DNA of 64,000 nt from a virus, in IMG/VR virus record IMGVR_UViG_3300017917_000321, positions 1 to 64,000 of that record. One strand, given 5' to 3'. The translations under genes were made by a program, and so were the position numbers. The notes beneath the pieces are model-generated. The model searched no databases, was not told where the DNA came from, and saw only the letters and a list, made by a program, of their open reading frames with translations. Below, in pieces: positions 17,509 through 62,046 of this stretch. The stretch's first letter is position 1. Every line of letters starts with the position of its first letter.

Positions 17509-17509
17509 G

Positions 17510-23019: not shown

Positions 23020-23373
23020 GTGGACGAAAGATTAGATAAAGCTCTCAAATTCAGCAACTATATGGTTACGCTGAACAATCAAAAAAGAGTAATCAAAGAG
23101 AAATTTTTTGAAGACTTATTATACTTTAACAGTGGTTGCCAATTTACTGTTACAAAAGAATTAATTACGTTTGTTGGATTGCTGATTGATCGCGGCAACG
23201 ATACTGATGTCGTATTAACAGATGATAACGACATACCTGCTAAAATTGGAGATTTAAAATCCTTTTATGCTGACATTTTAAACACTTATTTTACAGCAGC
23301 CAACAATTATCATACCAAGTATGAAGATTTAAGAAAAAATAGATCAGTAGAGAAGCTAGTTAACTATGAATAA
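23020..23373 (+). CDS. Conserved small phage protein, function unknown
   Basis: The protein of about 117 residues starts at GTG 23020, chosen because GGAGG (23010-23014) sits 5 nt before it. The in-frame TTG at 23008 would overlap that site. The sequence is helical and charged: 'DERLDKALKFSNYMVTLNNQ' near the start, a central 'FTVTKELITFVGLLIDRG', and an 'NRSVEKLVNYE' end. I recall similar proteins in marine T4-like cyanophages, uncharacterised. There are no membrane segments and no cysteine pairs. It overlaps the following glycosyltransferase-like gene by 8 bases and heads the enzyme operon. Confidence 0.65.
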   Translation: MDERLDKALKFSNYMVTLNNQKRVIKEKFFEDLLYFNSGCQFTVTKELITFVGLLIDRGNDTDVVLTDDNDIPAKIGDLKSFYADILNTYFTAANNYHTKYEDLRKNRSVEKLVNYE

Positions 23374-24223
23374 AACACGAGGTGTTGTTTTATTTGCTCG
23401 AAATAATGGCAGGCTTGATTATGTTAAGCAGGCTGTGTTTTTAGCAAAAAGAATAAAAGAATACTTAGATTTACCTACCACGGTTATTACAGATAGTTTT
23501 AACTATCTACAATCAAATTTTGATGTTTCTGTATTTGATAAAATTATTCAAGTTGAGTACATGGAAACAAAAAATAATAGAGCATTTTTTGACGGATCTC
23601 TTTCTCATAAAACTGCTCCTTTTAAGAATGACATGCGCGATGGCGTATACAATTGGTCACCATATGACGAAACACTGTTAATGGATACTGATTATATTAT
23701 TTGCAATGATCTTTTACTAAAGTGTTTTGATATGCAGCACGATCTCATGTTGTTTAAGGAATCGTATGACCTAGCAGATCATAGAGACCATACTGAATTT
23801 GAACATATAAGTGATTATACGATTGATTTTTATTGGGCTACTGTAGTTTTCTTCAGAAAGACCCCGGAGAATGAAGTATTCTTTGATTTAATTAGACATA
23901 TTAAGCAAGAATGGAATCATTACAGAAGATTGTATCAGGTTGAATCTAGTCTTTTTAGGAATGACTTTGCTTTTAGTATAGCAGTTCATATTATGAATGG
24001 TTTTGCAAAAGGCTCTTTTGTAGCACCTCTCCCAGGCAAGCATCTATACACCACTGATAGAGATGTTTTACAGAGATTAGACAACGATTCTATGATTTTT
24101 TTAGTAGAGAAAAAAGATCACTTAGGCGAATATACTATGCTTAAGACAGAAAAACAAAATGTGCATGTTATGAACAAGTTTAGTCTTGAACGTATTATTG
24201 ATGCGGAAATGAAAAATGTCTAA
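23366..24223 (+). CDS. GT-A-fold glycosyltransferase-like protein
   Basis: The 285-residue protein opens with a Rossmann-like strand 'GVVLFARNNGRLDYVKQAVF' and has the metal-binding-like 'ETLLMDTDYII' (DTD at residues 107-109), the hallmark of GT-A transferases of the GT8/GT2 type that bind nucleotide sugars through Mn2+. The C-terminal 'ESSLFRNDFAFSIAVHIMNG' resembles the acceptor-side segment of such enzymes. The next gene has the same plan and is a clear paralogue. No signal peptide or membrane anchor is visible, so it would act in the cytoplasm of the infected cell. Donor and acceptor cannot be told from sequence. It overlaps both neighbours by 8 bases. Confidence 0.6.
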   Translation: MNKTRGVVLFARNNGRLDYVKQAVFLAKRIKEYLDLPTTVITDSFNYLQSNFDVSVFDKIIQVEYMETKNNRAFFDGSLSHKTAPFKNDMRDGVYNWSPYDETLLMDTDYIICNDLLLKCFDMQHDLMLFKESYDLADHRDHTEFEHISDYTIDFYWATVVFFRKTPENEVFFDLIRHIKQEWNHYRRLYQVESSLFRNDFAFSIAVHIMNGFAKGSFVAPLPGKHLYTTDRDVLQRLDNDSMIFLVEKKDHLGEYTMLKTEKQNVHVMNKFSLERIIDAEMKNV

Positions 24224-25055
24224 AGGAATCTTAGTTTTAGCTCAAAATAACTCAACTGTTGATTACGTTGAGCAAGCCTGCCTATTAGCAATGAGCTTAA
24301 AGGTTACTAACCCTAACACAGATATTAGTATAGTTACAGATGACGCAGTTCCTGACGTGTACAAACATCTATTTGATAAAATAATTCCTATTCCTTTTAA
24401 TGATGATGCAGCTTCAGTTGACTGGAAGATTGAGAACAGATGGAAACTATATCATGCTACACCATATGATCAGACAATGGTGTTAGATACAGATATGCTT
24501 GTGTTACAGGATATAACAAGTTGGTGGAAATTTTTAGAAAACTATAAGTTATATTTTACATCTAAGGTATTTACATACCGAGGTGAAGTAGTTACTAGTG
24601 ACTATTATAGAAAAGCATTTACAGCCAACAATCTTCCTAATCTATACAGCGGCCTTCACTATTTTGAAAAAAGTGATCTAGCATTAGAATTTTATACTTG
24701 GCTAGAACTTGTTATGCAAAACTGGGAATTATTTTACGGAATGTATGTAAAAGAAAACTATCCTGGTCGTGTTAGCGTTGATGTAAGCGCAGCGATTGTT
24801 GCTAAAATTTTAGATTGCGACGAATCAATAACTAACAAGTATGCAAGTTTTCCTACATTTACTCACATGAAGCCTTATATTCAAAATTGGAATAGAACTC
24901 CTGAAAAATGGCAAGATTGTCTCGGAGTATATATTAATCGAAACTGTGAAATTAAAATTGGAAATTTTTCTCAGTCTGGTATATTGCACTACACTGAAAA
25001 AGACTTCGTTACTCCTGAAATTATAGAAAGATATAGGAATTACCTTCATGTCTAA
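24216..25055 (+). CDS. GT-A-fold glycosyltransferase-like protein, paralogue of preceding gene
   Basis: The 279-residue protein begins 'GILVLAQNNSTVDYVEQA', matching the start of the previous protein block for block, and carries 'DQTMVLDTDMLVLQDI' with DTD at residues 91-93. The middle has 'NLYSGLHYFEKSDLALEFY', a typical acceptor-facing region. Both residues of the DxD motif are intact, so it is likely an active nucleotide-sugar-dependent transferase. The tandem pair probably comes from a duplication. Substrates are unknown. Confidence 0.6.
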   Translation: MSKGILVLAQNNSTVDYVEQACLLAMSLKVTNPNTDISIVTDDAVPDVYKHLFDKIIPIPFNDDAASVDWKIENRWKLYHATPYDQTMVLDTDMLVLQDITSWWKFLENYKLYFTSKVFTYRGEVVTSDYYRKAFTANNLPNLYSGLHYFEKSDLALEFYTWLELVMQNWELFYGMYVKENYPGRVSVDVSAAIVAKILDCDESITNKYASFPTFTHMKPYIQNWNRTPEKWQDCLGVYINRNCEIKIGNFSQSGILHYTEKDFVTPEIIERYRNYLHV

Positions 25056-26433
25056 TTTTTCTGACTTCTTAAAATCCTTAAACATTGAGGTAACAGTATC
25101 AAGTGTTTCTTATGTTTACTATGATCCTCTTACAGGAAAAATAGTAAAAATAGCAAATAAACTAGATCCGGATGATACGCTTGCAACACTAGAAGTTCAG
25201 CATGACAGTGTTGCTGAAATTATTAACGGTACAAAGAGTTCTGAGAACTTTATTGTTGAATATGATGTTGCATTAAAGCAACTAGCACTTAGAGAAATAA
25301 CATACGAAGAACATCTTACCAAGATTGAGTCTCGACTTCATCGGTTACCAGTTGTTAGAACAACAACAGATGAAGCAGGAGATAAATCGTCAATTATTTT
25401 TGACAATATCTATGACGGAGTTGAAGTTTTTTTATGGACTTCCGGTAGTAGACATTTTAAGGATAGTTTAGTTTGGTATAAAAACAATGTTTATAAACTA
25501 TTGGAAAATATTGAGTCTGTTAAATTTGATACAACCAAATCAGAATTATTTGTAGCAAACGTTTCTCTACCAGATATTAAAAGTGTAAATCATTTCGTTG
25601 AATATAAAACAAGTTTTGACCCCATATATGAAGGAATTCATGTTGATGTTTGGTATAGAGAATTGCCACATTTCAAGGGTCAACACGTTTGGGCACATAA
25701 TACTGTTTATAGATACAAATTAGACGTAGCAGAAAATGAGCCTTTTGACTTAGAGTATCTTGATATTATTGAAGAAAACGTTTTTCTTTATGCTGATTCA
25801 AACAAGTATTTGAGTTTTGTTTCTATTTTATCTCCCGGAGATAAGATACTGGATAACAATAAATTATACCTGTTTGTGGACAAGAAGTTAAATGTTAATC
25901 CAAATGAAAAGTCTATATTATTCTATTCATCTAGATACGAAGGTTTATATTATGATGAAATTGCAAATAGACTTACAAAATTTTCATTCATAGAACGTAA
26001 TAACAAATTAACTGCTAAGTCAGAAGTCTTAGATGATGAAGTTGTGTTAACACCGAGCGTACATATCTCTAATGGACAAAAGGTATTAATTGGAAAATCA
26101 CTGTATCAGGCAAACACTCTAGATGAAAGAGATATTGACGTAAACGTTGTTCAAAATAATTTAATAGGCTGCTGGGAAATATATCTTGGAAGAAAAACAA
26201 AGAAAAGCCTTGAGATGATAAATTATATAGGTCATGATATTTTATATTTTAGTGTAACTGCTAAACATGACCCTAATGTTCTTTATAGAACTATGGATTT
26301 TTCTTTAACTAAATTATTAGCTAATAAGGTCCAAAGATATCCGTATCAGTACAAATGGGAAAGCGATCGCACCGACGTAAGTGTGTATACCGCAAAGTTT
26401 TTTGAAACCTATTCACATGAGATTTTAGAATGA
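25048..26433 (+). CDS. Putative virion-associated protein with two binding-type repeats
   Basis: This 461-residue protein has no enzyme motif. It starts 'VSYVYYDPLTGKIVKI...D' and carries two similar segments, residues 121-150 ('YDGVEVFLW...HFKDSLVWYKNNVYK') and 193-222 ('YEGIHVDVW...HFKGQHVWAHNTVY'). These resemble the 'Y..G..V.Y...YY.A' units of the giant tail protein, so it may be a small virion or glycan-binding protein rather than an enzyme. A third, weaker unit may lie near residues 338-362. It overlaps the neighbours by 8 and 4 bases inside a glycosyltransferase run. Function is unknown. Confidence 0.5.
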   Translation: MSNFSDFLKSLNIEVTVSSVSYVYYDPLTGKIVKIANKLDPDDTLATLEVQHDSVAEIINGTKSSENFIVEYDVALKQLALREITYEEHLTKIESRLHRLPVVRTTTDEAGDKSSIIFDNIYDGVEVFLWTSGSRHFKDSLVWYKNNVYKLLENIESVKFDTTKSELFVANVSLPDIKSVNHFVEYKTSFDPIYEGIHVDVWYRELPHFKGQHVWAHNTVYRYKLDVAENEPFDLEYLDIIEENVFLYADSNKYLSFVSILSPGDKILDNNKLYLFVDKKLNVNPNEKSILFYSSRYEGLYYDEIANRLTKFSFIERNNKLTAKSEVLDDEVVLTPSVHISNGQKVLIGKSLYQANTLDERDIDVNVVQNNLIGCWEIYLGRKTKKSLEMINYIGHDILYFSVTAKHDPNVLYRTMDFSLTKLLANKVQRYPYQYKWESDRTDVSVYTAKFFETYSHEILE

Positions 26434-27350
26434 GCAAGATTAAAGTTGTTGACTATGACATCATATACCTTAGCTATGATGAACCTAATGCAGAAAAAAA
26501 TTACGCAGACCTCTGTAAAAAGATTCCGTGGGCTAAACGTGTACACGGTGTTAAAGGCAGTGATGCTGCACACAAAGCCTGCGCTAGGCTAAGTGAAACT
26601 GATAGATTTATTACTGTTGACGGTGATAATACTGTCAGAGAAGAATTTTTAAATCAAGAAATTGATTTTAAAGAGCATCATGATCTTACTAATTGTGTGA
26701 TTAGTTGGAGCGGCAGAAATGTTATCAACGGACTAATGTACGGTAATGGCGGATTGAAATGTTGGCCAAAAGAATTTGTGTTAAACATGAAAACGCATGA
26801 AGCAGCAGATCCCAAAAACAAACATGCTCAGGTAGATTTTTGTTGGGATGTGCAGTATATACAAATGAACAGTTGCTATTCAGATGTACACAACAATGCT
26901 AATCCTGCACAGGCATGGAGAGCAGGATTCCGCGAAGGTGTTAAGCTAGCTCTTGATAGAGGAATTAAACCCACAAAAGAAGAGTTTTTAAAAAACCATT
27001 GGCGTTGTTTGCATTGGCTCTATATATGGACTATGGTAGGCGCCGATGTTGAGTACGGCAAATGGGCAATACTAGGAGCCAGAGAAGGTCTTTTTAAAAC
27101 AATGCTTACTGACTGGGATTATGTTAACGTTCGCGATTTCGAATATCTAAACGATTTATGGTCAAAAGAATTTGAAGGCATGGACGAAGATGTAATGGAT
27201 GCTAGAATTAAATTCCTTGGCCGAGAACTCAGCGAAAATCTAAATGTTCCTATAGGTGAAATACTCTCACCAGATCAAAGTAAGTTTTTTAAAACAGTAT
27301 ACGAGCATCCTGCTAGAACAGATCATCAGAGATTTATTGAACGGCTATGA
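26430..27350 (+). CDS. Glycosyltransferase-like protein (DGD motif)
   Basis: The 306-residue protein opens 'YDIIYLSYDEPNAEKNYADL', has 'RVHGVKGSDAAHKACA' and then 'RFITVDGDNTV' with DGD at 64-66, the expected place for a GT-A metal-binding motif. The 40131 gene has the same order of blocks ('ISYNEPNAESNW', 'RIDGVKGIHQAH', 'VVDADAQ'), so the two are paralogues. The C-terminal 'NPAQAWRAGFREGVKLAL' block is also shared with that gene ('DPFNTWRSAFRECVKL'). Proteins with this start are, as I recall, common in marine T4-like phages. The transferred group is unknown. The start ATG overlaps the upstream stop as ATGA. Confidence 0.55.
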   Translation: MSKIKVVDYDIIYLSYDEPNAEKNYADLCKKIPWAKRVHGVKGSDAAHKACARLSETDRFITVDGDNTVREEFLNQEIDFKEHHDLTNCVISWSGRNVINGLMYGNGGLKCWPKEFVLNMKTHEAADPKNKHAQVDFCWDVQYIQMNSCYSDVHNNANPAQAWRAGFREGVKLALDRGIKPTKEEFLKNHWRCLHWLYIWTMVGADVEYGKWAILGAREGLFKTMLTDWDYVNVRDFEYLNDLWSKEFEGMDEDVMDARIKFLGRELSENLNVPIGEILSPDQSKFFKTVYEHPARTDHQRFIERL

Positions 27351-28585: not shown

Positions 28586-28588
28586 TTA

Positions 28589-29857
28589 ATGTCTCATCTT
28601 TTTGAAAAACTTAGAAACTCAAAAACATTCTGTATCATGCCATGGATTCACTGTGCAACACAGACTAATGGTGCTGTGCAGTTATGCTGTGTGGCTTCTC
28701 CTATTAAAGAATTAAATCTAAACAATATGACATGGGATGAAGTATGGAACAGTGAACAGTATAAAGATGCAAGATTAAAAATGCTATCAGACGAAAAGGT
28801 TTCTTATTGTACGAATTGTTATAAGGAAGAAGCAGCAGGAATTAAAAGCCATAGACAGAATGAAAACGAAGTCTGGGCAAATAATTGGAGTCCTATTAAA
28901 TTACATGAGTTAAGGAAAATTGTTGCTGACACAAACGATGACGGTTCTATTGATAGCGGTATTGTTAGTGTTGACTTTAGACTAGGAAATACCTGTAATT
29001 TACAGTGTGTAATGTGCAGGCCTCATGACAGCAGCAAATGGTTAAATGATTCAAAATTCCTTGCTGAAAATCTAACAAGCGAAGCTAAATGGGACTGGAA
29101 ACACAAAAGTAACATTGTTATAGAACAATTTGAATGGTATAAGAATCAAAAATTTTGGGATAGCTTTTATGAATCTGCGCATAATATTAGAGATCTAATA
29201 TTCGGCGGCGGAGAACCTATACTCATCAAACAGCATAAAGAACTTATCAAACATCTTGTTAAGATCGATCATGCTAAAAATGTTGAAATTCGTTATCATA
29301 CTAACGGAACAATGTTGGATGAAGAATTGTTGGAACTATGGACACACTTTAAGAAAGCTCATATCATGGTGAGCCTAGATGCTCATCAAGACCTAAACAG
29401 TTACATTCGTTATCCTGCCAAGTGGGAAGATATAGAAAAGCATCTAAGAATCTATGATAATACAACTGGCGGTGATATTATACTAGATATCAATTGTACT
29501 GTACAGGCTCTTAATGTAAATTATCTGCCAGAGTTTGCAGAATGGATCTGGGCCCAAGATTATAAGAAGATTGGTAAGAGAACACTGTCATCTCCGTTCC
29601 ATACAGCAACACTGCACTGGCCAAAGTATCTATGCACCAAGGTTTTGCCACTAGAATCAAAAAAACGTGTGGCTGAAAAGTTAAACACATTCATGGCTAA
29701 GCATCCTAATAATCCAGAGATACAAAAATGGTCTGCAATCGTAGATTTTATGATGAGTGAAGACTGGTCTGACATGCTGGATCAAACAAAAGACTATCTC
29801 AGAATGCTGGATAAAATTAGACCTGTGCAATTTCCTGAAATATACAAACTGTTATAA
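28589..29857 (+). CDS. Radical SAM protein with N-terminal twitch domain (rSAM 1)
   Basis: The 422-residue protein carries the radical SAM [4Fe-4S] motif CNLQCVMC (C136, C140, C143) and 'FGGGEP' near residue 205, the SAM-binding GGE motif. Upstream is a twitch-type auxiliary cluster region: 'FCIMPWIHCATQTNG', CC at 33-34 and 'YCTNCYKEE' (C74, C77). This matches the twitch-domain radical SAM family (N-terminal twitch type), whose substrates are mostly unknown. The family is related to SPASM/twitch enzymes that modify peptides or small molecules. It has 2 or more paralogues here with the same order of motifs. It follows two glycosyltransferase-like genes and is followed by an SGNH protein 2 bases later. 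Confidence 0.85.
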   Translation: MSHLFEKLRNSKTFCIMPWIHCATQTNGAVQLCCVASPIKELNLNNMTWDEVWNSEQYKDARLKMLSDEKVSYCTNCYKEEAAGIKSHRQNENEVWANNWSPIKLHELRKIVADTNDDGSIDSGIVSVDFRLGNTCNLQCVMCRPHDSSKWLNDSKFLAENLTSEAKWDWKHKSNIVIEQFEWYKNQKFWDSFYESAHNIRDLIFGGGEPILIKQHKELIKHLVKIDHAKNVEIRYHTNGTMLDEELLELWTHFKKAHIMVSLDAHQDLNSYIRYPAKWEDIEKHLRIYDNTTGGDIILDINCTVQALNVNYLPEFAEWIWAQDYKKIGKRTLSSPFHTATLHWPKYLCTKVLPLESKKRVAEKLNTFMAKHPNNPEIQKWSAIVDFMMSEDWSDMLDQTKDYLRMLDKIRPVQFPEIYKLL

Positions 29858-29859
29858 GA

Positions 29860-30633
29860 ATGAAATATCTAGTAACATCTGGTTGTAGTTTTTCTGATAA
29901 TCACGGTATGCGCTGGCCGCATTATCTAGCTGAAGCGTTAAACCTACAGCTATTTAATAGGGGTCAGGGTAGCTCGGGTAATCATTGGATAGCTAAATCT
30001 TCTATATATCAAACTCAGTTATTACTGGATAAGGGAATCGACCCTAACGATATAATGGTTGCTGTTATGTGGTCTGGTATTGATAGAAAAGATTGTTTTA
30101 TTGATACTGAGACAATTAACTATGAAAGGCTAATTAACAACCTCAACGATCATCCTAATCCTGTTAATTTCTTAGACAATGAACCTAACGTAAGAAATAA
30201 ACACAGCCTACCAACAGCTGATGGATATTTGTCAGGTTCTGCTAGCTGTACTTTTGCAAACGAAAATATTAATAAATTTAAAAAAGATCTAGTGTTGAGA
30301 TATTTTTCTCCGCAAGCTCTTGCTATCGAATCTTATGAAAACTTTTTAAGATTACAATGGTTTTGTAAAAGTGTAGGGGTGCGATTAATTAATCAAACTT
30401 TTATGGAAATAATGAAATTTCCTACAGGTAATATTTTAACAAAAGATTATTATAGAAATATAACACCGCTTTACAATATGATTGATTTCAATCAATGGAT
30501 ATTTTGGAATCAAACTCAAGGTATATACGAATACTGTAGAGATAATAATTTAACCTTTTATGAAGATAAGATACATCCGTCAGAAGAATCACATTATAAA
30601 TATGTTTATGATTTTTTACGGAAAAAATTATAA
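29860..30633 (+). CDS. SGNH/GDSL hydrolase-like protein 1
   Basis: The 257-residue protein starts 'MKYLVTSGCSFSDNHGMRWP'. GCSFS corresponds to block I of SGNH hydrolases with nucleophile Ser10, 'GQGSSGNHW' at 35-43 gives the Gly and Asn oxyanion blocks, and 'DKIHPSEESHY' near the C-terminus carries the DxxH catalytic pair. These enzymes are esterases, often removing or transferring O-acetyl groups on glycans. There is no signal peptide. Two more SGNH-like proteins occur in this window. A late promoter for the next gene lies inside its 3' end (30595-30602). Confidence 0.65.
   Translation: MKYLVTSGCSFSDNHGMRWPHYLAEALNLQLFNRGQGSSGNHWIAKSSIYQTQLLLDKGIDPNDIMVAVMWSGIDRKDCFIDTETINYERLINNLNDHPNPVNFLDNEPNVRNKHSLPTADGYLSGSASCTFANENINKFKKDLVLRYFSPQALAIESYENFLRLQWFCKSVGVRLINQTFMEIMKFPTGNILTKDYYRNITPLYNMIDFNQWIFWNQTQGIYEYCRDNNLTFYEDKIHPSEESHYKYVYDFLRKKL
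30595..30602 (+). promoter_or_regulatory. T4 late promoter, exact consensus TATAAATA
   Basis: TATAAATA, identical to the T4 late consensus, lies inside the 3' end of the upstream gene (codons for H-Y-K-Y) and ends 30 nt before the ATG at 30633. The spacing matches the other late promoter/start pairs in this window. Confidence 0.6.
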
Positions 30634-31373: not shown

Positions 31374-31454
31374 AAATTTATTGTATTCTACGGTATTTCA
31401 GAAGTATCGATCTTTAGAAAAGTAATCATTAAATAAAAGAACAAGGACTAAAAA

Positions 31455-35491: not shown

Positions 35492-35504
35492 GAGGAGAAT
35501 GACA

Positions 35505-36819: not shown

Positions 36820-36850
36820 TTAGAACAACAGTATTTTAAAGGATACAATC

Positions 36851-51044: not shown

Positions 51045-51058
51045 GAGTAACTCTGGCT

Positions 51059-51087: not shown

Positions 51088-51114
51088 GGGTAACACCTAA
51101 GGTTCAATTATAGA

Positions 51115-54504: not shown

Positions 54505-54507
54505 ACA

Positions 54508-55239
54508 ATGTACGGTCGCGTAATCAAAAACTATGATCCAATTAATCATGGCATAACTAAACACTTTTTGTATGAAACTAATGACTGGGATCTTATTGAA
54601 TTAAACTATAACGTAGATGTTGAACGTTTACAAGACTGGTGGAAGACCGTTCTAAAGAACTACGAGAACATGGTTTTTGATTTTAACAAGCACTACCAGT
54701 CTTTAGAATTAGAAAAAAGCAAAGAGATGGTAGAACAGGGCTACTGCGGATACTATTGCGGCCCGATTGACGGAGTCACACTAGCATGGCCCGAAGAAAA
54801 ATACGAAGCATTGCCTCCGCCTGTACAAGCCAACTTAGAAAAGTATCCAGAGGTCAACAGAGAAACTTTCTTTGATGACGCTACGCTATTACCTAAGTTA
54901 AGATTTGGATACTTTGACGAACTAATTAATGAACTAGGAGAAGATAGTTTCAGGCAAGCGATTGTTACTAGACATCATCCTGGAATGTATATTAGGCAGC
55001 ATAGAGACAGTAAGGTTTTAAAACTGCATATACCTATCGAGTCTCACGAAAATGCTTTCTTCCATTTTGGCGAAAATAAGGAACATGGCAAATATCATTT
55101 AAAGCCTGGAAAAGTTTACATACTTAACACAGGTGACTGGCATGGTACAACCAATGAGACTGATATTTTTAGATCTCATATTATAACAAGAATTGCAGAT
55201 TGGCATATACTAAAGGTAATTGGGATGACTAATGACTAA
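54508..55239 (+). CDS. 2OG/Fe(II) oxygenase, Asp/Asn-hydroxylase type (2OG-3)
   Basis: The 243-residue protein has 'GMYIRQHRDSKVLKLHIPIE' (H165, D167) and 'NTGDWHGTTNETDIFRSHII' (H212, R222), a complete triad with the Arg ten residues later. 'AFFHFGEN' and 'LKPGKVYILNTGDWH' are family blocks. The N-terminal half is unique. It overlaps the next gene by 8 bases. The spacing of H and Arg is the same as in the next gene, so these are close paralogues. Substrate unknown. Confidence 0.8.
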   Translation: MYGRVIKNYDPINHGITKHFLYETNDWDLIELNYNVDVERLQDWWKTVLKNYENMVFDFNKHYQSLELEKSKEMVEQGYCGYYCGPIDGVTLAWPEEKYEALPPPVQANLEKYPEVNRETFFDDATLLPKLRFGYFDELINELGEDSFRQAIVTRHHPGMYIRQHRDSKVLKLHIPIESHENAFFHFGENKEHGKYHLKPGKVYILNTGDWHGTTNETDIFRSHIITRIADWHILKVIGMTND

Positions 55240-55894
55240 GGTGATGAAAAGGTATATAGAGCAGTACGAGCCTATTGATTTAGGTTTTACTATTATGCCT
55301 TGGATACCTGTAGATGTACAAGCCATAAGAGAATGGTACACTGATTTAGAAAAAAATTACAGTGATTGGAAATTTGTAATAGGTGAAAATCATCATGTTT
55401 GGAAAATGCCTATCTCTGACCCCACAGGAGAGACAGGTCATATTTTGCCTGATGATGCATTTTATTATACTCTGTGTTGGAATGGAGATGAACCTGGACC
55501 AAAACCCTTTGAACAAGGTTGTGCAAAACCTGAGTACAGAGATGATGACAATGACGAATTAAATCCTAGACAGTGTTTTAATGGCTATGCATTAGATTTT
55601 GTAAAACAACTTCCGGTTAGAAGTAAGAAATGGTTAATAACAGGCCACACACCGGGAACTAAATTAATAACACATCAAGATGCTACCGATAAAATAAGAG
55701 TACACATTCCTATATACACTAATGAAGATAGTAACTGGACAATTAACGGTGAAGAATATCACATGGAGCCTGGGTGGGCATATCTAGTTAATACAACACT
55801 GCCACACAGTGTAGAAAATAAAGGTTCAACTAACAGAATACATTTATACGGTAAAGTATGGACTGATGATGTAAGGAAAGTATTGTGCGTGTAG
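55232..55894 (+). CDS. 2OG/Fe(II) oxygenase, Asp/Asn-hydroxylase type (2OG-4)
   Basis: The 220-residue protein has 'GHTPGTKLITHQDATDKIRV' (H148, D150) and 'VNTTLPHSVENKGSTNRIHL' (H192, R202), the iron and 2OG ligands. 'WTINGEEYHMEPGWAYLVNT' matches the core strands. It is paralogous to the previous and to the 56901 protein, sharing 'TGHTPGT' and 'LVNTTLPH'. It overlaps the next gene (SDR-like) by 10 bases. Substrate unknown. Confidence 0.8.
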   Translation: MTKVMKRYIEQYEPIDLGFTIMPWIPVDVQAIREWYTDLEKNYSDWKFVIGENHHVWKMPISDPTGETGHILPDDAFYYTLCWNGDEPGPKPFEQGCAKPEYRDDDNDELNPRQCFNGYALDFVKQLPVRSKKWLITGHTPGTKLITHQDATDKIRVHIPIYTNEDSNWTINGEEYHMEPGWAYLVNTTLPHSVENKGSTNRIHLYGKVWTDDVRKVLCV

Positions 55895-56466
55895 TAATAA
55901 CAGGATCTAAAAAATCTAACACACCTGGACATGTAATGAATGGTTGGATGCATGATTATTTTGAAGATCATGAGATTATAACTATTTCTAAATCTAACGG
56001 TTATGACTTTTACACCGATTATGATAGGATATTAGAAGTAGCAAAGACGGCAGACATTTTCGTTAATAGTGCTGCCGTAGACAAATTTCAAATTAAATTT
56101 TTTCAAGACTTATATGGTCATGTACCTAAGATAATTTCTTTAGGAAGTATTGCAGCAGATTTTAGCGATGCACTTAATGATTTTTATCCAAAGATGAAAA
56201 AAGAGTTAAAGACAAAGCATAAGTTTTTACCTTTAACAAATCTTAATGTTTCTAGCGATATCTTGCATATTACTTTAACAGAGGTAGAAAATATAGAAGA
56301 ACATATTCAGGGTATGACCTACAATCAACTTAAAAGAATTTTAGATTTTTGGTTTGAAAATCCTTTCTTCACTAATATAGATTTAAAATACTTCACAGAA
56401 ACATACACTGACTCTGATAAGCTATCTAAAATACAGAGAGTGCTAGCACACTATGAAAATAAATAG
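55885..56466 (+). CDS. Small SDR-like NAD(P)-dependent protein
   Basis: Starts at GTG 55885 with AAGGA 7 nt upstream. The 193-residue protein opens 'MRVVITGSKKSNTPGHVMNG' (nucleotide-binding start), has 'NSAA' at 61-64 in place of NNAG, 'IISLGSIA' (S88) and 'YPKMKKELK' (Y101, K105), which fits the SDR Ser-Tyr-Lys triad. It is shorter than the usual 250 residues and the glycine motif is loose, so cofactor binding may be weakened. It probably is a reductase or dehydrogenase for a small carbonyl. Coupled by 10-14-base overlaps to its neighbours. Confidence 0.6.
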   Translation: MRVVITGSKKSNTPGHVMNGWMHDYFEDHEIITISKSNGYDFYTDYDRILEVAKTADIFVNSAAVDKFQIKFFQDLYGHVPKIISLGSIAADFSDALNDFYPKMKKELKTKHKFLPLTNLNVSSDILHITLTEVENIEEHIQGMTYNQLKRILDFWFENPFFTNIDLKYFTETYTDSDKLSKIQRVLAHYENK

Positions 56467-56914
56467 AATTTCTCAAGCAAACTTTAAATCCTTAATGGAG
56501 CAACAGAATATTACAGACCAAACCGTAGATAGCTCTAACGATTTCTATATCTGCTTAAATTCCACAGGATGGATACACAGTATCCCTTATTTTAAAGAAG
56601 AACACGCAAATGTAATCAATCTATATTTTGACGATGTTGAGTCATCAGGTCCAAAAGAGATACAATGGTTTGGCGGAGAAACAAAAATCATTGATGCAAT
56701 AGCAATGAACGAAAGTCAAGCAGAACAGCTAGTTAGGTTTATTTCTACAATACCTTCCGATGCTATTGTTTATATTTATTGTGCTAAAGGAAAGTCACGC
56801 TCGAGAGCTGTTGAAGATTTTATACTGAGCATTGAAACTAATATTGATACTATATCTGAAGGATCTAATCAACATGTTTATAAAAGTTTAAGAGAAGCCT
56901 ATGCTAGACTTTAA
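56453..56914 (+). CDS. Tyrosine/dual-specificity phosphatase-like protein
   Basis: The 153-residue protein contains 'IVYIYCAKGKSRSRAVEDF' with C110 and R116, the CX5R signature of cysteine phosphatases. The usual His before Cys is Tyr109. Acidic residues 60-61 ('YFDDVES') may provide the general acid. The size fits small dual-specificity phosphatases. I recall relatives in marine T4-like phages with this exact plan. It may remove phosphate from proteins, sugars or nucleotides. The start ATG overlaps the SDR gene by 14 bases. Confidence 0.7.
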   Translation: MKINRISQANFKSLMEQQNITDQTVDSSNDFYICLNSTGWIHSIPYFKEEHANVINLYFDDVESSGPKEIQWFGGETKIIDAIAMNESQAEQLVRFISTIPSDAIVYIYCAKGKSRSRAVEDFILSIETNIDTISEGSNQHVYKSLREAYARL

Positions 56915-58082
56915 AATTAAAGAATTACCTAACATAAAGTTTTCACATACAGCACTACTCAATTATTATAATGAAGTAGTGCAAAATTATCAACATCTAA
57001 AATGGACACCGGCAGGTATTGATACTTTAAATCACAAAGTTGGCGGAGTTTATAGTTGGGCAATACAAAGTAACTTAAAGGACCCTTCGAAGCCCTGTCC
57101 TCCTTACGACATTAAAAACGACGTTGACATACATCCTAACAATGATTTTAAAGTCCCAACAGAACTAATTTTTGGATTTGGAAAAATAGTAGTTGAAGCG
57201 TTTCCTGAAGTTAGACAAACTGTTATAAGCGCACATCCTCCTGGAACAGTAATCGGTGAACACATAGATAATGATGAATTTGTAAAAATACATATACCTA
57301 TTAAAGCTAATAATAACAGCTTCTTTGTATTTGGCGATGAGAAATACAATTTAGAAGAAGGCAAGGCGTATCTTATTAATACAACACTACCTCATGGCAC
57401 TACAAACGAAGGTGATACAGATAGAATACATTTAATTTTTAAATTTCCAATTGAACTAGTTGATACTGTATTATCTACTGATTGGATACTTGATCCTAGC
57501 TTCATTGATTTTGATCTTTTAGAGATAAAAAATTTAGAGTTTGATTTTAACGAACTTGTTGATTACTATAATACAATTAAGCAAGACTATCAATATCTTA
57601 AATGGACAATGCCAGACATTCCTAAAACAAACCTAGGTGGTCTTTACGGATTTGGAATTTTAACAAACAAAGACAATCCTGACGACCCTACCGATCCTCC
57701 GGGAATACGTACGGATAAGAAAAAATTTGAACCTTTGATTAAACCTACAAAGATGCTAACAGGATTTGCTAAGAAGATCTACGAAAAGATTCCGTATCTA
57801 GAGGAATTGGTAATAACAGGTCATCCTGCTAACAGCGGTATCCCACCGCATATTGATAAGGATGAGCATATTCGTATACACTTACCTATTTTTGCTAATG
57901 ACAGATCATATTTTATGATAAACGGAAATGAGTATGTGTTAGAGCCCACTAAGGTATATCTAGTTAACACAAAAAGGATACATACTACTATAAACAGTGG
58001 AAATGAAGATAGAATACATCTACATTTTAAAATACCGATTGGTAAAATAGACTACTTTTTAAAGACCGGAGTAAAACTATGA
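56901..58082 (+). CDS. Tandem two-domain 2OG/Fe(II) oxygenase (2OG-5)
   Basis: The 393-residue protein is an internal duplication. Domain 1 has 'GEHIDND' (H121, D123), 'LPHGTTNEGDTDRIHLIF' (H165, R175). Domain 2 has 'PPHIDKD' (H317, D319) and 'IHTTINSGNEDRIHLHF' (H361, R371). Both triads and Args are intact, and the two halves share 'QxLKWT' and 'VYLVNT'-type blocks. The tandem likely acts twice on one substrate or on two sites. It lies immediately before the halogenase gene, with ATGA overlap, which suggests a linked hydroxylation/halogenation step. Confidence 0.8.
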   Translation: MLDFKIKELPNIKFSHTALLNYYNEVVQNYQHLKWTPAGIDTLNHKVGGVYSWAIQSNLKDPSKPCPPYDIKNDVDIHPNNDFKVPTELIFGFGKIVVEAFPEVRQTVISAHPPGTVIGEHIDNDEFVKIHIPIKANNNSFFVFGDEKYNLEEGKAYLINTTLPHGTTNEGDTDRIHLIFKFPIELVDTVLSTDWILDPSFIDFDLLEIKNLEFDFNELVDYYNTIKQDYQYLKWTMPDIPKTNLGGLYGFGILTNKDNPDDPTDPPGIRTDKKKFEPLIKPTKMLTGFAKKIYEKIPYLEELVITGHPANSGIPPHIDKDEHIRIHLPIFANDRSYFMINGNEYVLEPTKVYLVNTKRIHTTINSGNEDRIHLHFKIPIGKIDYFLKTGVKL

Positions 58083-59317
58083 AAATAGCAGTTGTTGGTG
58101 GTGGTACAGCAGGTTGGATGGCTGCTGCATATCTAAGTAAAACATTCGATGTTACGATTATCGAAAGTGCAGATATACCTATTGTGGGTGTAGGAGAAAG
58201 CACACTTCCTATTGTTAAGAAGTTTTGCGATGATTTAGGACTTGACGAAGCAGATTGGATGCCATTATGTCAAGCAGAATACAAGCTAGGTATTAGACAT
58301 GAAGGTTGGAAAAAGGATCGAAAAGATCCTTGGTGGCATTGGTTCTTATATGACAGAAACAAAGATAGCGAAATGCTCAAGCACGTAGAAAATCATACAG
58401 TACCCCCTAGCGGTAGTTATGCTTATCACGTAGATGCTATGAAATTTGGTTCAGCAGTAATGAAGCCTGTTGCCCTTAAAAACGGAGCCAAACATTTAAT
58501 AGATACTGTTGAAGATGTAGCGTTAAATGCTGATGGAGAGATTGACCATTTATTGTTAAAAAATAACGGTCCTAAATGTTTTGACCTTTATGTTGATGCA
58601 ACAGGATTTGCAAAAGTTCTAGCAAAGAAAGTGGGAATAAACTATCTTCCATACGAACATTTAATCAATGACAGTGCTGTGGCCTGTCCTCAAGAACCTG
58701 CACCTATTCAGAATAGATACACTATTACTAGGACTATGAACCACGGTTGGATGTGGGAAATTGCACTACAGAATCGTAGAGGCGCAGGTTATGTTTTTAG
58801 CAGTAAACACTGTTCAGACGAAGAAGCGATTGAAGAATACCTACAGTATTTTCCAAACTCGGATAGATCGAAACTGCGTGTTATAAAATTCAAACCTGAG
58901 TATGCAGAAAATCCATTCTACAAAAATGTAGCAACAGTTGGTATGAGCTGCGGATTCATTGAACCTTTAGAAGCTAATAGTATATGGATGATATCTTATA
59001 ATGTATTGGGACTTTATAGATGTTTAACAGAGGGAAAGTCTTTTGATACATTTAATAGAGCCTTTAGAAAAACCAGTTTTGAAATGTATGATTTTATCCT
59101 AAGTCATTATACACTGTCTGATAGAGATCATACAGACTACTGGAGATACTATAAGGATCTAGAACAGAAGATTAATACTAGAGATAGAGTTAAAGAAAAG
59201 AGTAAACTAATGGATGTAGAACTAGGAAGACATCCTGGGATATTCTATCCCTACAGTTGGTGGACTAAAGACAAATACTTTAATCAAGACGCCACGCTTT
59301 ATACTCAGGAACATTAA
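58079..59317 (+). CDS. Flavin-dependent (tryptophan) halogenase
   Basis: The 412-residue protein starts 'MKIAVVGGGTAGWMAAAYLS' (FAD-binding GxGxxG at 7-12), has 'VGVGESTLP' (36-44), 'EYKLGIRHEGW' where K69 aligns with the catalytic lysine of the family, and 'HGWMWEIAL' near residue 222 as the WxWxIP motif with Ala for Pro. 'GFIEPLEANSIWMI' is the conserved C-terminal block. It is shorter than the usual 510-540 residues. Such enzymes use FADH2, O2 and halide to chlorinate, brominate or iodinate aromatic groups; cyanophage halogenases of this family (VirX1) are known. A flavin reductase is not seen in the window. Overlaps the next minus-strand gene tail-to-tail by 38 bases. Confidence 0.85.
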   Translation: MKIAVVGGGTAGWMAAAYLSKTFDVTIIESADIPIVGVGESTLPIVKKFCDDLGLDEADWMPLCQAEYKLGIRHEGWKKDRKDPWWHWFLYDRNKDSEMLKHVENHTVPPSGSYAYHVDAMKFGSAVMKPVALKNGAKHLIDTVEDVALNADGEIDHLLLKNNGPKCFDLYVDATGFAKVLAKKVGINYLPYEHLINDSAVACPQEPAPIQNRYTITRTMNHGWMWEIALQNRRGAGYVFSSKHCSDEEAIEEYLQYFPNSDRSKLRVIKFKPEYAENPFYKNVATVGMSCGFIEPLEANSIWMISYNVLGLYRCLTEGKSFDTFNRAFRKTSFEMYDFILSHYTLSDRDHTDYWRYYKDLEQKINTRDRVKEKSKLMDVELGRHPGIFYPYSWWTKDKYFNQDATLYTQEH

Positions 59318-59879
59318 CACGCCATAGCTTTTGCTTGGTGTACATGTACTCAAAGTTGTCATCGACTAGCGTAAAGATTCCAGTCCTAGCTACCCTAGGA
59401 ACCATGTTTTCATTCATGCGTTGACTCTTGCCGTTGGTTGATGACTTTTCTATATTAGTTGTGAAATAAAATTCAGCAACTGGATTAATATTAGTAATAA
59501 AATCAATCTGCATATTTAGAACTTCCATTAGCTGATAGCTGGCTCTAAAACTATGCTGACCAGTGGTGTATCCTGGTAGCGTTGCTCCTCTATAGAATAC
59601 TCTATATGCATTTGTATTCAGTTCTTTCATAGAATGAACACCGCATAAATTAAAAATAATATCTTTGTCTACATCGTACCCTACAAAAAACTGTCCATGA
59701 GGCATCTTCATTTTTTCTAAATTTATTGCCTTAAATGAACTGTTATTATAGTAACCTAATGAGTCGCATCTATTACAAAAATCTTGCAACTTATTATGAT
59801 CACTATCTTGGAGGAGTCTAAACAGAATATTAGAATTCATTCTTCCATGTTGTTCTATTTGCTTCTTGTCTTCTACCAT
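59280..59879 (-). CDS. Conserved protein, possibly GNAT-like
   Basis: The 199-residue protein has no clear catalytic motif. 'GQFFVGYDVDKDIIFNLCGV' and 'RVARTGIFTLVDDNFEYMYT' might form beta strands of a GNAT-type acetyltransferase, which would fit the neighbouring ANL gene, but the acetyl-CoA loop (Q/RxxGxG/A) is not visible. The start is ATG 59879, overlapping the ANL gene by 50 bases; ATG 59840 is an alternative. It is on the minus strand, opposing the halogenase gene. The function is unknown. Confidence 0.5.
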   Translation of the reverse strand: MVEDKKQIEQHGRMNSNILFRLLQDSDHNKLQDFCNRCDSLGYYNNSSFKAINLEKMKMPHGQFFVGYDVDKDIIFNLCGVHSMKELNTNAYRVFYRGATLPGYTTGQHSFRASYQLMEVLNMQIDFITNINPVAEFYFTTNIEKSSTNGKSQRMNENMVPRVARTGIFTLVDDNFEYMYTKQKLWRVNVPEYKAWRLD

Positions 59880-60501
59880 AAAACTCTAACGTATTCATGT
59901 CAAAAATATCACCAGTTGATCGACCATTGATAATGCATTCGGCTAATTGAGATGTAGCACTAACAGGCATAAACATTATGTGCTCATCTTTAGCCAGTGT
60001 AGACATGTCAAACTTTGTTGAATTGTATCCTACTAGTATAGGAGGAGGGTACTCGGTCATACCATACCAATTAGCAACTATCTGTACACCGTGATTTCTA
60101 AATGTGTCAATAAACTCCTGAGTAATTTTATTACTACCTGTGACCATGTATCTTACACAGCTCATGTCTAACTGTGCAAATCCTTTGGTCTTTTTTAGTA
60201 ATTCAAAGTGTCTCGGTATAAGACTAATAAAAGTAGGCTGTACTTCTTTAAACAGTTCAATGTATGAGTACGCATTAAATGCAGCAGTGCATAGGTGTGC
60301 GCCACTTAGCATTGCTGGATAAGCAGTTATTGTATAGTGTGCTATGGTGTTAGATGGAAACACATCTAACACTCTATCCTCTGGTCCTAGTTTGCTTTCT
60401 TTAATAGAGCGTAATGCGTAGGACTTCATTCTTTCCCAACTGTGGTTTACCTTTTTAGGTTCATCTGTACTGCCTGACGTGAATAGAGTAATACCGCTCA
60501 T
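59830..60501 (-). CDS. Miniature ANL-type (AMP-binding) adenylation protein
   Basis: The 223-residue protein has 'LFTSGSTDEPKKVNHSW' (the ATP-binding P-loop, TSGST at 8-12), 'NWYGMTEYPPP' (A5, YGMTE 146-150) and 'STGDIFD' (A7-like, 196-201), then ends soon after 'YGRR' (A8). So it has only the core of the N-terminal domain of an acyl-CoA synthetase or adenylation domain (normally about 500 residues) and lacks the mobile C-terminal lid with Lys A10. It may adenylate an acid alone or act with a partner. Start/stop overlap with the upstream gene is TAATG. Confidence 0.7.
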   Translation of the reverse strand: MSGITLFTSGSTDEPKKVNHSWERMKSYALRSIKESKLGPEDRVLDVFPSNTIAHYTITAYPAMLSGAHLCTAAFNAYSYIELFKEVQPTFISLIPRHFELLKKTKGFAQLDMSCVRYMVTGSNKITQEFIDTFRNHGVQIVANWYGMTEYPPPILVGYNSTKFDMSTLAKDEHIMFMPVSATSQLAECIINGRSTGDIFDMNTLEFYGRRQEANRTTWKNEF

Positions 60502-61322
60502 TACAAATCCTTTAGTATTTCGTTAGCTGTGTGTAAATGCACACCTGTGCCAGGATGGGCAGAGATGTTATTATTTTGTTTCATTACATCACGGGCGTAA
60601 CGTTCGCTAACATTATATATGTTTAAGCTGTCCATGTCAATGCTTTTAAGGTTGAAATCCTGTACAAATTTGTCGTCTGGATAATAGGATAGTTCAATTA
60701 ATTTACAGCCTAGGCTTTTACAAAACTCTCTAAGCATTGTTGAATAACACTGTGCTTCTTTTAGCAAAAAGTCTGTGTTCGTTAATAAATTGTATGCATC
60801 AATATACGTTGGATACTCAAGTGGAATATGTTTTCCCGAGAATGTTAGAGATTTGTCATTATCAAAAAATGTATATCCATGAATTGGGGGGTATTCAAAA
60901 ATGCATATTTTTGGAGTAGTAAATTTTTTTATGTAATTAAAAAATGAATACACCTGTAGTTTAATACTAAAGGTAGGTCCTGCATAGTTAATGTAATCAA
61001 AATTTAAACGATCTGCAATGATATCAGAAAATCTTTTTTCTTCTGGTATGCCTATCCCCATGGCATAACTAGTACCTGACACATAGACAAGGTTTGATGA
61101 TAACGTGTCTAACTCTTTAGTCATACGCAATCCGTGAGAATTAAAATTATATACAACCGGAGTATCTTTATACATCCAATCATCAGGCATATATTTTAGA
61201 TTTCTTTCAAACAGATCTTCTCTATCAGGACCGTAAAACCGGTAAGACCCCGGCTTCATGCTGTCATGAGTATACGGCCAATCCTGAACGTTGTATAGTT
61301 GTACTGTGTTTAACTTAGACAT
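60501..61322 (-). CDS. SGNH hydrolase-like protein 3
   Basis: The 273-residue protein has 'NLVYVSGTSYAMGIGIPEEK' where GTSYAMG (83-89, S85) is the SGNH block I, 'YINYAGPTFSIK' as block II, and near the end 'NNNISAHPGTGVHLHTANEI' with a His in the expected block V place. An Asn block III is not evident. It lies in the minus operon with the mini-ANL gene and overlaps the oxygenase gene by 8 bases. It may be an acyl-transferase or esterase acting with the adenylation module, or on glycans. Confidence 0.55.
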   Translation of the reverse strand: MSKLNTVQLYNVQDWPYTHDSMKPGSYRFYGPDREDLFERNLKYMPDDWMYKDTPVVYNFNSHGLRMTKELDTLSSNLVYVSGTSYAMGIGIPEEKRFSDIIADRLNFDYINYAGPTFSIKLQVYSFFNYIKKFTTPKICIFEYPPIHGYTFFDNDKSLTFSGKHIPLEYPTYIDAYNLLTNTDFLLKEAQCYSTMLREFCKSLGCKLIELSYYPDDKFVQDFNLKSIDMDSLNIYNVSERYARDVMKQNNNISAHPGTGVHLHTANEILKDL

Positions 61323-62046
61323 CGGTTGGCTTGAATTTAAAGAGAGACTCTAAATCTTCCTTTTTAGGAGTTCCGTAAAGTATTACCCAATCATCTCCTT
61401 CGTGATTAATAACAGAATGAAATACTGCTGTGTTTACAAGATATACTTTTCCAGGTTGTAGTATGTATTCTCTTTCAGCAGTATGACCAAAATACCATAC
61501 GCAGTTTTCATGTATCTGAAGGTTCATGTGCATGCGAGCAATAACATTAGGATAAGGCACGTCTACATGTAAGTGCAGTCCTGATCCTTCTGGTATAACT
61601 GTTACTCGCATGTTTAGTAGATACTGTGCTGCCTTGTTGTATAGCTTTTCAAATGCACCAAATTTATACTTTGATAAAATTGGATTAGATTGATCGCTAA
61701 AATTAGGATCACCAATTTCTGGATACAACTCTTTATTTGCTATGAAACTAAAAGGAAGAGGGTCGTAGCGTTCTTTTGACCAATTTAACAACCACCAATA
61801 AGTGGGGTTACCGCTATCGAATGATGGATCGGCAGCTTGCCATCGCCTCACCATATTCGAATCATAATATTTTTCGTATTCCTTACTTACTACAAATTTA
61901 GCTGATTGTAAATTGAGTTTGACCTGTTGGTACCATTCTAACAGACCTGTGTGATCTACGCTAAAAGGCAACTCGATAATATCCCAATCTATATTTTGCA
62001 GATCGGAAGTCTTTAAATTTTCAATGTCTGTTATATATCGCTGCAT
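61315..62046 (-). CDS. 2OG/Fe(II) oxygenase-like protein (2OG-6)
   Basis: The 243-residue protein (ATG at 62046 chosen, as the TTG at 62064 lies within the T tract of the terminator) has 'GSGLHLHVDVPYP' (H160, D162), 'VYLVNTAVFHSVINHEGDDW' (H210). The Arg that binds 2-oxoglutarate in the other members is not found here (GDDWVILY in place of xDRIHL), so it may use a different residue or be altered. No Shine-Dalgarno is seen. It probably belongs to the same family, with changed cofactor binding. Confidence 0.65.
   Translation of the reverse strand: MQRYITDIENLKTSDLQNIDWDIIELPFSVDHTGLLEWYQQVKLNLQSAKFVVSKEYEKYYDSNMVRRWQAADPSFDSGNPTYWWLLNWSKERYDPLPFSFIANKELYPEIGDPNFSDQSNPILSKYKFGAFEKLYNKAAQYLLNMRVTVIPEGSGLHLHVDVPYPNVIARMHMNLQIHENCVWYFGHTAEREYILQPGKVYLVNTAVFHSVINHEGDDWVILYGTPKKEDLESLFKFKPTDV

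What the first reader, a model, noticed from the sequence alone, without database searches (positions are those of the whole stretch)
23020..62046. Candidate phage chemical tailoring island
Between the fibre genes and the Mtd-like gene lie nine radical SAM proteins, seven HxD...H oxygenase domains, a flavin halogenase, a mini adenylation protein, three SGNH proteins, a sulfotransferase-like protein, a UDP-sugar dehydrogenase, two PP-loop ATPases, a methyltransferase and about six glycosyltransferase-like proteins, mostly with overlapping starts. This mix looks like a biosynthetic or decoration pathway. Possible targets are the fibres or giant tail protein, host surface glycan, or a small molecule used during infection. 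Which of these applies is not shown by the sequence.
Basis: inference. Interest (0 to 1): 0.85.

Follow-up and report, generated by a model that had tools for sequence, protein, structure and literature searches.

The report
Jumbo-phage fibre-side chemical tailoring island
Next to its tail-fibre genes, a large uncultured aquatic virus of bacteria carries about 40 genes for enzymes that build, attach and chemically remodel something, most likely sugars or protein parts on the virus particle; the core of this set is kept in the same order in dozens of related viruses, but what it decorates is not yet known.

Summary
Nine radical SAM proteins (all with intact CxxxCxxC), seven HxD oxygenase domains, a flavin halogenase, a 223-aa mini-adenylation protein, a UDP-sugar dehydrogenase and several DxD glycosyltransferase-like proteins lie between the fibre genes and an Mtd_N-type fibre gene; 19 of 25 consecutive genes overlap or abut. 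The window is part of an 89-kb IMG/VR fragment of a jumbo phage distantly related to Phosso, Atu_ph07 and PA5oct.

The island is not random cargo. A core (GTc2-rSAM-MT-rSAM-rSAM-rSAM / kinase-like-rSAM / oxygenase-u493) keeps order and strand in most of 92 loci (44 clusters at 93% identity); the span from fibres to Mtd_N is colinear in two distant genomes. The unknown core protein u493 was not found in 50,697 phage records or 84,980 prokaryote genomes. An optional block (KEL1/2, OX4, OX56, GNAT, AMP) comes and goes together; the halogenase is a variable accessory.

Best reading: a cytosolic pathway making and tailoring a glycan or other modification for virion fibre/tail proteins. Host-surface modification is the main rival. 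Closest known: the pelagimyophage host recognition cluster. In cultured relatives the same slot holds another rSAM operon, beside a protein with an invariant C-terminal (CHxS)3-RxRR tail.

The parts
15454..22914 (+). fibre-type genes (684, 630, 496, 309, 329 aa) forming the left boundary; Collar and Peptidase_G2 domains; colinear in G005 and G009
23008..23373 (+). h121, small conserved protein directly after the fibres
   Evidence: conserved in G005, G009, L118
23366..24223 (+). GTa, glycosyltransferase-like, DxD (MDTDY)
   Evidence: no Pfam hit
24216..25055 (+). GTb, glycosyltransferase-like, DxD (LDTDM)
   Evidence: no Pfam hit
25048..26433 (+). u461, unknown, size-variable; counterparts in G005 and G009
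26430..27350 (+). GTc1, glycosyltransferase-like (VDGD), 50-53% identical in G005, G009, L118
27347..28585 (+). GTd1, putative glycosyltransferase (inference from sequence); relatives in several islands
28589..29857 (+). rS1, N_Twi radical SAM (NF033640, 367.8 bits)
29860..30633 (+). SGNH1 (DUF6071, 27.8 bits)
30633..31373 (+). SGNH2, motif only
   Evidence: no Pfam hit
31455..32675 (+). UDP-sugar dehydrogenase
   Evidence: PF00984, PF03721
32636..33775 (+). rS2, N_Twi radical SAM (182.9 bits)
33772..34377 (+). u201, unknown
   Evidence: no hit
34367..35491 (+). PP-loop-like protein 1, motif only
   Evidence: no Pfam hit; 90% identical relative in L010
35445..35954 (+). DUF2061 membrane protein, the only clear membrane protein of the island
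35878..36816 (+). nitronate monooxygenase/IMPDH-type protein
   Evidence: PF03060
37130..38320 (+). PP-loop protein 2 (weak ATP_bind_3)
38317..39519 (+). GTd2, putative glycosyltransferase
   Evidence: inference; relatives
39503..40120 (+). sulfotransferase-like, by sequence inspection only
   Evidence: no Pfam hit
40131..40814 (+). GTc2, glycosyltransferase-like (VDAD); left end of the conserved core; fused to a second GT-like unit in some relatives
40774..41784 (+). rS3, radical SAM, core
41772..42758 (+). rS4, radical SAM with C-terminal SPASM, core
42755..43357 (+). MT, methyltransferase-like (sequence inspection), core
   Evidence: no Pfam hit; conserved
43354..44649 (+). rS5, N_Twi radical SAM (410.8 bits), core
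44646..45632 (+). rS6, radical SAM, frequent shell gene
45661..46317 (+). OX1, HxD oxygenase-like, co-varies with the KEL/AMP block
46314..47222 (+). rS7, radical SAM, core
47211..48362 (-). KEL1, beta-propeller paralogue of KEL2, optional block
48352..49593 (-). KEL2, predicted beta-propeller (pLDDT 86.2), optional block
49562..50017 (-). KIN, 151-aa kinase C-lobe-like protein (HxDWxxSN, DWDN invariant or nearly so), core
50004..51044 (-). rS8, N_Twi radical SAM (216 bits), core
51115..52314 (+). rS9, N_Twi radical SAM (334.4 bits)
52307..53026 (+). OX2, Asp/Asn-hydroxylase-type oxygenase (69-74% identity across the alignment), core
53023..54504 (+). u493, core protein of unknown family; model weakly suggests GT-A plus methyltransferase-like halves
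54508..55239 (+). OX3 oxygenase
55232..55894 (+). OX4 oxygenase, optional block
55885..56466 (+). SDR-like protein, sequence inspection
   Evidence: no Pfam hit; relatives
56453..56914 (+). small phosphatase-like protein (CAKGKSR)
   Evidence: no Pfam hit
56901..58082 (+). OX5-OX6, tandem oxygenase domains, optional block
58079..59317 (+). flavin-dependent halogenase, variable accessory
59280..59879 (-). GNAT-like protein (weak), always beside AMP where both are seen, optional block
59830..60501 (-). mini-adenylation protein (SGST..PK, YGMTE, TGD kept; N-terminal subdomain and C-terminal lid missing), optional block
60501..61322 (-). SGNH3, motif only
   Evidence: no Pfam hit; relatives
61315..62064 (-). 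OX7 oxygenase
62113..63363 (-). fibre-type protein with Mtd_N domain, right boundary

Best explanation
A resident, mostly vertically inherited module of a clade of aquatic jumbo phages makes and tailors a chemical modification of the phage's own fibre/tail proteins in the cytosol before assembly. Proposed steps, all inferred: the UDP-sugar dehydrogenase and related genes supply activated (uronic) sugars; the DxD glycosyltransferases encoded next to the fibres (GTa, GTb, GTc1, GTc2, possibly u493) put them on a protein; core radical SAM enzymes, the methyltransferase-like protein and OX2 remodel the sugar or the polypeptide; the optional oxygenase/GNAT/adenylation/propeller block adds hydroxyl and acyl groups; the halogenase is a lineage-specific finish. 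Shown: enzyme classes with intact catalytic motifs, tight linkage, conserved order and strand, position between fibre genes and a virion-type gene, near absence of membrane steps. Not shown: substrate, product, any activity.
For: Catalytic motifs intact in 9/9 rSAM and conserved in oxygenases, halogenase, AMP, KIN. Core order and strand kept in most of 92 u493-bearing loci, 44 clusters at 93% identity, with 51-74% identity of u493. Whole span fibres > h121 > GTa > GTb > u461 > GTc1 > rSAM > UDPGDH > GTc2 ... > u493 colinear in a 268-kb and a 157-kb record, with the Mtd_N/s103 and downstream right flank seen in the second and, for the first, in locus L061. GTa/GTb/GTc1 sit at the fibre boundary also in a more distant phage-like contig (L118). 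All but one of the island proteins lack clear membrane segments. Non-contiguous block KEL1/KEL2 and GNAT/AMP always together: 29 both, 5 neither, 0 mixed. In cultured relatives Phosso and Atu_ph07 the slot after the orthologous giant protein, w14825 orthologue (54.6%) and fibre holds another rSAM + cupin operon.
Against: No substrate identified; no virion proteomics. Where Mtd_N is replaced by other proteins (L040-L044) the core persists, so that protein is not the obligate target. Presence/absence of the optional block rests on only 1-2 independent changes, so its phylogenetic support is weak. Glycosyltransferase labels rest on motifs and a low-confidence fold. Published authors read a similar island as host O-chain modification (PMC7029224).
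Confidence: 0.48

Rival explanations
1. Host-surface glycan modification: the enzymes alter the host's LPS/O-chain or other envelope glycan during infection, for example to block superinfection or free progeny.
For: UDP-sugar dehydrogenases, nucleotidyl- and glycosyltransferases, a cytidylyltransferase and an epimerase are encoded; this is the interpretation given for pelagimyophage host recognition clusters (PMC7029224); some Asp/Arg_Hydrox relatives (LpxO) hydroxylate lipid A (own knowledge).
Against: No flippase, polymerase, ligase or lipid-linked initiating transferase found; only DUF2061 is clearly membrane-bound. Fixed position beside fibre genes and strong conservation fit a virion target better; does not explain why the cultured relatives' slot holds rSAM/cupin genes beside a tail-bearing protein.
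Confidence: 0.22
2. Small molecule or peptide (RiPP-like) made during infection, acting on the host or competitors.
For: Halogenase, mini-adenylation protein, SPASM/twitch rSAM and oxygenases resemble natural-product tailoring enzymes.
Against: No carrier protein, condensation domain, exporter or recognisable precursor found; adenylation protein lacks its N-terminal and lid parts; no CHxS-type tail in any window-type locus; halogenase variable.
Confidence: 0.13
3. DNA hypermodification cluster.
For: The record encodes GTP cyclohydrolase I and a QueE-like weak rSAM hit outside the island; some phage DNA hypermodification clusters contain glycosyltransferases (title cited in PMC12619734; own knowledge).
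Against: None of the Pfam hits in the island is a DNA-base enzyme (TET/JBP, thymidylate-synthase-like, DNA methylase); the position is with fibres, not with replication genes.
Confidence: 0.05
4. A passive hypervariable gene-accumulation site without joint function.
For: Shell genes differ between lineages; halogenase shows 8 inferred changes.
Against: Core order and strand conserved over 44 clusters; catalytic residues kept; u493, OX2, rS5 under strong conservation.
Confidence: 0.06

Closest known systems
Host recognition cluster (HRC) of pelagimyophages and cyanomyophages (PMC7029224)
   Same: Large island in the structural region with tail fibres, several glycosyltransferases, UDP-glucose 6-dehydrogenase and radical SAM cassettes
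   Different: There defined between VrlC and gp14 and described as non-syntenic/hypervariable; here the core is colinear over a broad clade, the right flank is Mtd_N-s103-DUF2201/MoxR-type genes, and the u493/KIN/N_Twi/propeller/mini-AMP core is not mentioned in the passages read
T4-like TARA_ERS488813_N000010 with 12 radical SAM genes (PMC5332604)
   Same: Phage genome very rich in rSAM genes
   Different: Discussed there as Fe-S metabolism; linkage to fibres or tailoring enzymes not described in the passages read
VirX1, cyanophage Syn10 flavin-dependent halogenase (PDB 6qgm; PMC8407142)
   Same: Same family of viral flavin halogenase, 198 bits to the profile
   Different: VirX1 is 531 aa, ours 412 aa; its native substrate is not given in the passages read
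N_Twi_rSAM, NF033640 (twitch domain-containing radical SAM protein)
   Same: Five of nine rSAM proteins exceed its 170-bit cut-off
   Different: The NCBIfam model gives a domain architecture, no function
Virion glycosylation of mycobacteriophages (Freeman 2023, as cited in PMC12619734)
   Same: Phage glycosyltransferases decorating capsid and tail tube proteins
   Different: No radical SAM/oxygenase/halogenase tailoring known to me there; primary paper not held
rSAM-cupin-2OG operon with (CHxS)3-RxRR tail protein in jumbo phages Phosso, Atu_ph07, SURPRISE13/FLC, DT01 (found here)
   Same: Same class of enzymes; in Phosso and Atu_ph07 the same slot after the fibre genes
   Different: rSAM sequences only distantly related to the window's; no glycosyltransferase recognised; has a clear candidate substrate tail that the window lacks

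Membership tests
Pelagimyophage host recognition cluster | tail fibres plus glycosyltransferases, UDP-Glc dehydrogenase and rSAM in one island | tested here: met
   definition from PMC7029224
Pelagimyophage host recognition cluster | bounded by VrlC and neck protein gp14 | tested here: inconclusive
   left flank is a 4910-aa virion-type protein (not tested as VrlC); the right flank runs Mtd_N, s103, DUF2201, MoxR with no gp14 recognised
Pelagimyophage host recognition cluster | non-syntenic, hypervariable content | tested here: not met
   core colinear in 44 clusters; shell genes do vary
Flavin-dependent tryptophan-type halogenase | Pfam Trp_halogenase above cut-off | tested here: met
   303 bits vs cut-off 21
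Flavin-dependent tryptophan-type halogenase | GxGxxG and the presumed catalytic lysine | tested here: met
   GGGTAG and invariant K69 in alignment A2; equivalence to K79 of characterised enzymes by inspection
Flavin-dependent tryptophan-type halogenase | WxWxIP motif | tested here: not met
   WMWEIA, last residue differs
N_Twi_rSAM (NF033640) | score above 170 bits | tested here: met
   28589, 32636, 43354, 50004, 51115: 367.8, 182.9, 410.8, 216, 334.4
RiPP biosynthetic cluster | precursor with conserved core beside the maturase | tested here: not met
   none recognised in the window; no CHxS tail in window-type loci. Other kinds of core cannot be excluded
O-antigen/LPS assembly cluster | membrane flippase, polymerase or ligase | tested here: not met
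DNA hypermodification cluster | DNA-base enzymes (TET/JBP, TS-like, DNA methylase) in the cluster | tested here: not met
   no such Pfam hit
Adenylation (AMP-binding) enzyme | core motifs SGSTxxPK, YGxTE, TGD | tested here: met
Adenylation (AMP-binding) enzyme | N-terminal subdomain and C-terminal lid | tested here: not met
   223 aa; profile positions 168-330 of 384 only
Mtd / diversity-generating retroelement | reverse transcriptase and template/variable repeats | not tested
   only the Mtd_N domain was found

The most novel reading that the evidence does not exclude
The core is a previously undescribed virion-maturation pathway in which radical SAM, 2-oxoglutarate-type oxygenase and, in some lineages, halogenation chemistry is applied to glycosylated or bare fibre/tail proteins; it is one branch of a wider habit of jumbo phages of placing rSAM maturases beside their fibres, the other branch being maturation of a (CHxS)n-RxRR C-terminal tail. 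Phage particles would then display enzymatically cross-linked, hydroxylated or glycan-tailored surfaces.
Probability: 0.27. Interest if true: 0.87.

Novelty: new variant of a known kind. Interest (0 to 1): 0.64.

Why it matters
If right, jumbo phages chemically finish their adhesins with radical enzymes, a layer of host recognition and shielding that gene-level fibre comparisons would miss. The core is widespread in aquatic IMG/VR contigs and absent from the cultured-phage collection, which may be why it was overlooked. The operons found in cultured relatives make the general idea (rSAM maturation of tail-region proteins) testable by mass spectrometry now, and the island is a source of unusual enzymes: a mini-adenylation protein, a one-lobe kinase-like protein, tandem oxygenases and a short flavin halogenase.

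Tried and rejected
Megablast against phages: nothing. PHROGs: no family for most core proteins. PDB sequence search: no relative for u493, KEL2 or GTc2; weak GNAT and proline hydroxylase hits. u493 fold: no match at E<=0.001; top matches a PBCV-1 glycosyltransferase (E 2.4e-3) and an rRNA methyltransferase (E 2.7e-3), mean pLDDT 72.9, treated as a hint only. KEL2 fold: a beta-propeller matching many functions, not informative on role. Bacterial source: u493 profile found none in genome contigs (pattern-based, so distant forms could be missed); the rS5 profile gave two loci, one of them phage-like (L118 read). Search for a CHxS tail or analogous tail in the window: none. Sign test for the co-varying block: only 1-2 independent pairs, so not significant.


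Full report
1. What was checked. The window is bases 1-64000 of an 89,086-base linear IMG/VR virus record; the rest was read as L001 and L002. Its B-family DNA polymerase is closest to jumbo phages Phosso, PA5oct and Atu_ph07 (46-50% identity), so this is very likely a fragment of a jumbo phage. No close relative is in the phage collection.

2. The observation. Pfam, NCBIfam and motif checks confirm the tailoring-enzyme content. All nine rSAM proteins keep CxxxCxxC; five exceed the cut-off of NF033640 (twitch-first rSAM). Seven oxygenase domains keep HxD. The halogenase scores 303 bits and its profile matches solved tryptophan halogenases and VirX1. The 'Mtd-like' gene has the Mtd_N domain only.

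3. It is a conserved module. Searching IMG/VR with the halogenase, rS5 and the u493 profile gave 4, 31 and 108 relatives. Laying window proteins onto these loci shows one repeated order: GTc2, rS3, MT, rS4, rS5, OX1, rS7 on one strand; KEL1, KEL2, KIN, rS8 on the other; then OX2, u493, more oxygenases, often a halogenase; then GNAT, AMP and, in many, Mtd_N on the opposite strand. 92 loci with a near-complete u493 form 44 clusters at 93% identity. In larger records the rSAM genes are concentrated there; for example in the 356-kb record 9 of 10 matches lie within about 49 kb. In the 268-kb G005 and 157-kb G009 records the left part is colinear from the fibre genes through h121, GTa, GTb, u461 and GTc1 onward, and in G009 the right flank (s103, L001 orthologues) follows. 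A phage-like contig binned in a gammaproteobacterial MAG (L118) keeps fibre-h121-GTa-GTb-x-GTc1-rSAM.

4. Phage-specific. u493 and rS3 had no tblastn match in 50,697 phage records, rS5 only weak Vibrio phage matches. The u493 profile found nothing in 84,980 prokaryote species genomes, within the limits of a pattern-seeded scan.

5. Core and optional block. KEL1/KEL2 and GNAT/AMP, which are separated by core genes, are both present in 29 clusters and both absent in 5, never split; OX4 and OX1 mostly follow. On the u493 tree this needs 2-3 changes, and only 1-2 independent pairs exist, so the association is suggestive and not statistically established. The halogenase needs 8 changes and is an accessory.

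6. What it works on. Shown: apart from DUF2061, no island protein has a clear membrane segment (one borderline, PPl2); no assembly or export genes were recognised. The island lies beside fibre genes in all genomes where the flank is available. Unannotated shell genes in other lineages look like sugar-nucleotide genes (nucleotidyltransferase, HAD phosphatase, SDR, second UDP-sugar dehydrogenase, by inspection). Inferred: a nucleotide-sugar-fed, cytosolic modification of virion fibre/tail proteins, then tailored. Mtd_N itself is replaced in some lineages that keep the core, so it is not the obligate target. The u493 model hints at a glycosyltransferase plus methyltransferase protein, at low confidence. 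KEL2 is a confident beta-propeller of unknown role.

7. The same slot in cultured relatives. Phosso and Atu_ph07 encode, next to the fibre, the w14825 orthologue and a giant virion protein, an operon: cupin, rSAM, a roughly 300-aa protein, more rSAM. The protein after the first rSAM ends in DYCHTSCHASCHSSRSRR (Phosso) or DFCHSSCHASCHNSRSRR (Atu_ph07). Burkholderia phage SURPRISE13 and Pseudomonas phage DT01, reached through their rSAM, have cupin-rSAM-tail protein operons with 2OG oxygenases, ending CHSSCHTSCHGSRGRR and CHTSCHTSCHSARGRR. An IMG/VR scan found 362 relatives of that rSAM; of 84 loci read (80 IMG/VR plus the four cultured ones; L132 is Atu_ph07 itself), 75 carry such a tail. Among 26 tail proteins below 60% identity, mean identity is 0.28 in the body and 0.73 in the tail. 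No NCBIfam family fits; the weak best is FibroRumin, a Cys-rich rSAM-modified RiPP, at E 0.009 for one of five. This looks like an rSAM substrate on a tail-region protein. It is a separate system from the window's, which has no such tail, but it supports the idea that fibre-side rSAM genes in jumbo phages act on the phage's own proteins.

8. Compared with the known. The nearest published thing is the host recognition cluster of pelagimyophages (PMC7029224): fibres, glycosyltransferases, UDP-glucose dehydrogenase and rSAM cassettes, about 44.6 kb, read there as O-chain modification. This island shares the content but fails the hypervariable criterion for its core. Hence a new variant of a known kind. 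rSAM richness of a T4-like marine genome was noted before (PMC5332604).

9. Verdict. Observation confirmed; decoration pathway supported; target open, with virion proteins favoured (0.48) over host surface (0.22), small molecule (0.13), passive accumulation (0.06) and DNA (0.05).

Noticed in passing
L127:32415-33335(-), L129:25119-26009(-), L130:16060-16620(+), L131:13025-13561(+) and loci L132-L211: Proteins in fibre-side rSAM/cupin/2OG operons of jumbo phages end in an almost invariant (CHxS)3-RxRR tail while their bodies are hardly alike (0.28 vs 0.73 mean identity, 26 proteins). Probably a RiPP-like rSAM substrate on a tail-region protein; apparently undescribed.
   Followed up: partly
L201:9096-9653(+): Expanded tail with five repeats, CHCSCHSSCHSSCHSSCHSSRARR; weak NCBIfam match to FibroRumin (E 0.009).
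   Followed up: no
L154, L189, L205 and similar loci: A second tail type ends CHSNCHGSCHGS(I/L) without the RGRR end.
   Followed up: no
L001:7598-8335(-), 6352-7224(-), 13852-15384(-): GTP cyclohydrolase I (Pfam) and a QueE-like weak rSAM hit; a possible TGT/DpdA-like protein (no Pfam hit). Suggests 7-deazaguanine chemistry outside the island.
   Followed up: partly
L001:16477-18417(-): Adjacent cytidylyltransferase, UDP-sugar dehydrogenase and epimerase genes, a second sugar-nucleotide cassette about 18 kb beyond the island.
   Followed up: partly
window 59830-60501(-): Natural mini-adenylation protein that keeps A3, A5 and A7 type motifs in 223 aa, conserved in 12 aligned relatives.
   Followed up: partly
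window 49562-50017(-): 151-aa protein with only a kinase C-lobe-like catalytic motif (HxDWxxSN ... DWDN), conserved in the core.
   Followed up: partly
L109:424-1263(+), 2564-3685(+): Shell genes in one lineage look like porphobilinogen deaminase and a class III aminotransferase (by inspection).
   Followed up: no
L012, L028, L032 (GTc2 region): Two GTc-like units fused in one 505-584-aa protein; in the window the homologous units GTc1 and GTc2 are separate genes about 13 kb apart.
   Followed up: no
window 36851-37120(+): 90-aa conserved ORF in the largest gap of the island, with AAYNAF/AAYNNF repeats; unknown.
   Followed up: no
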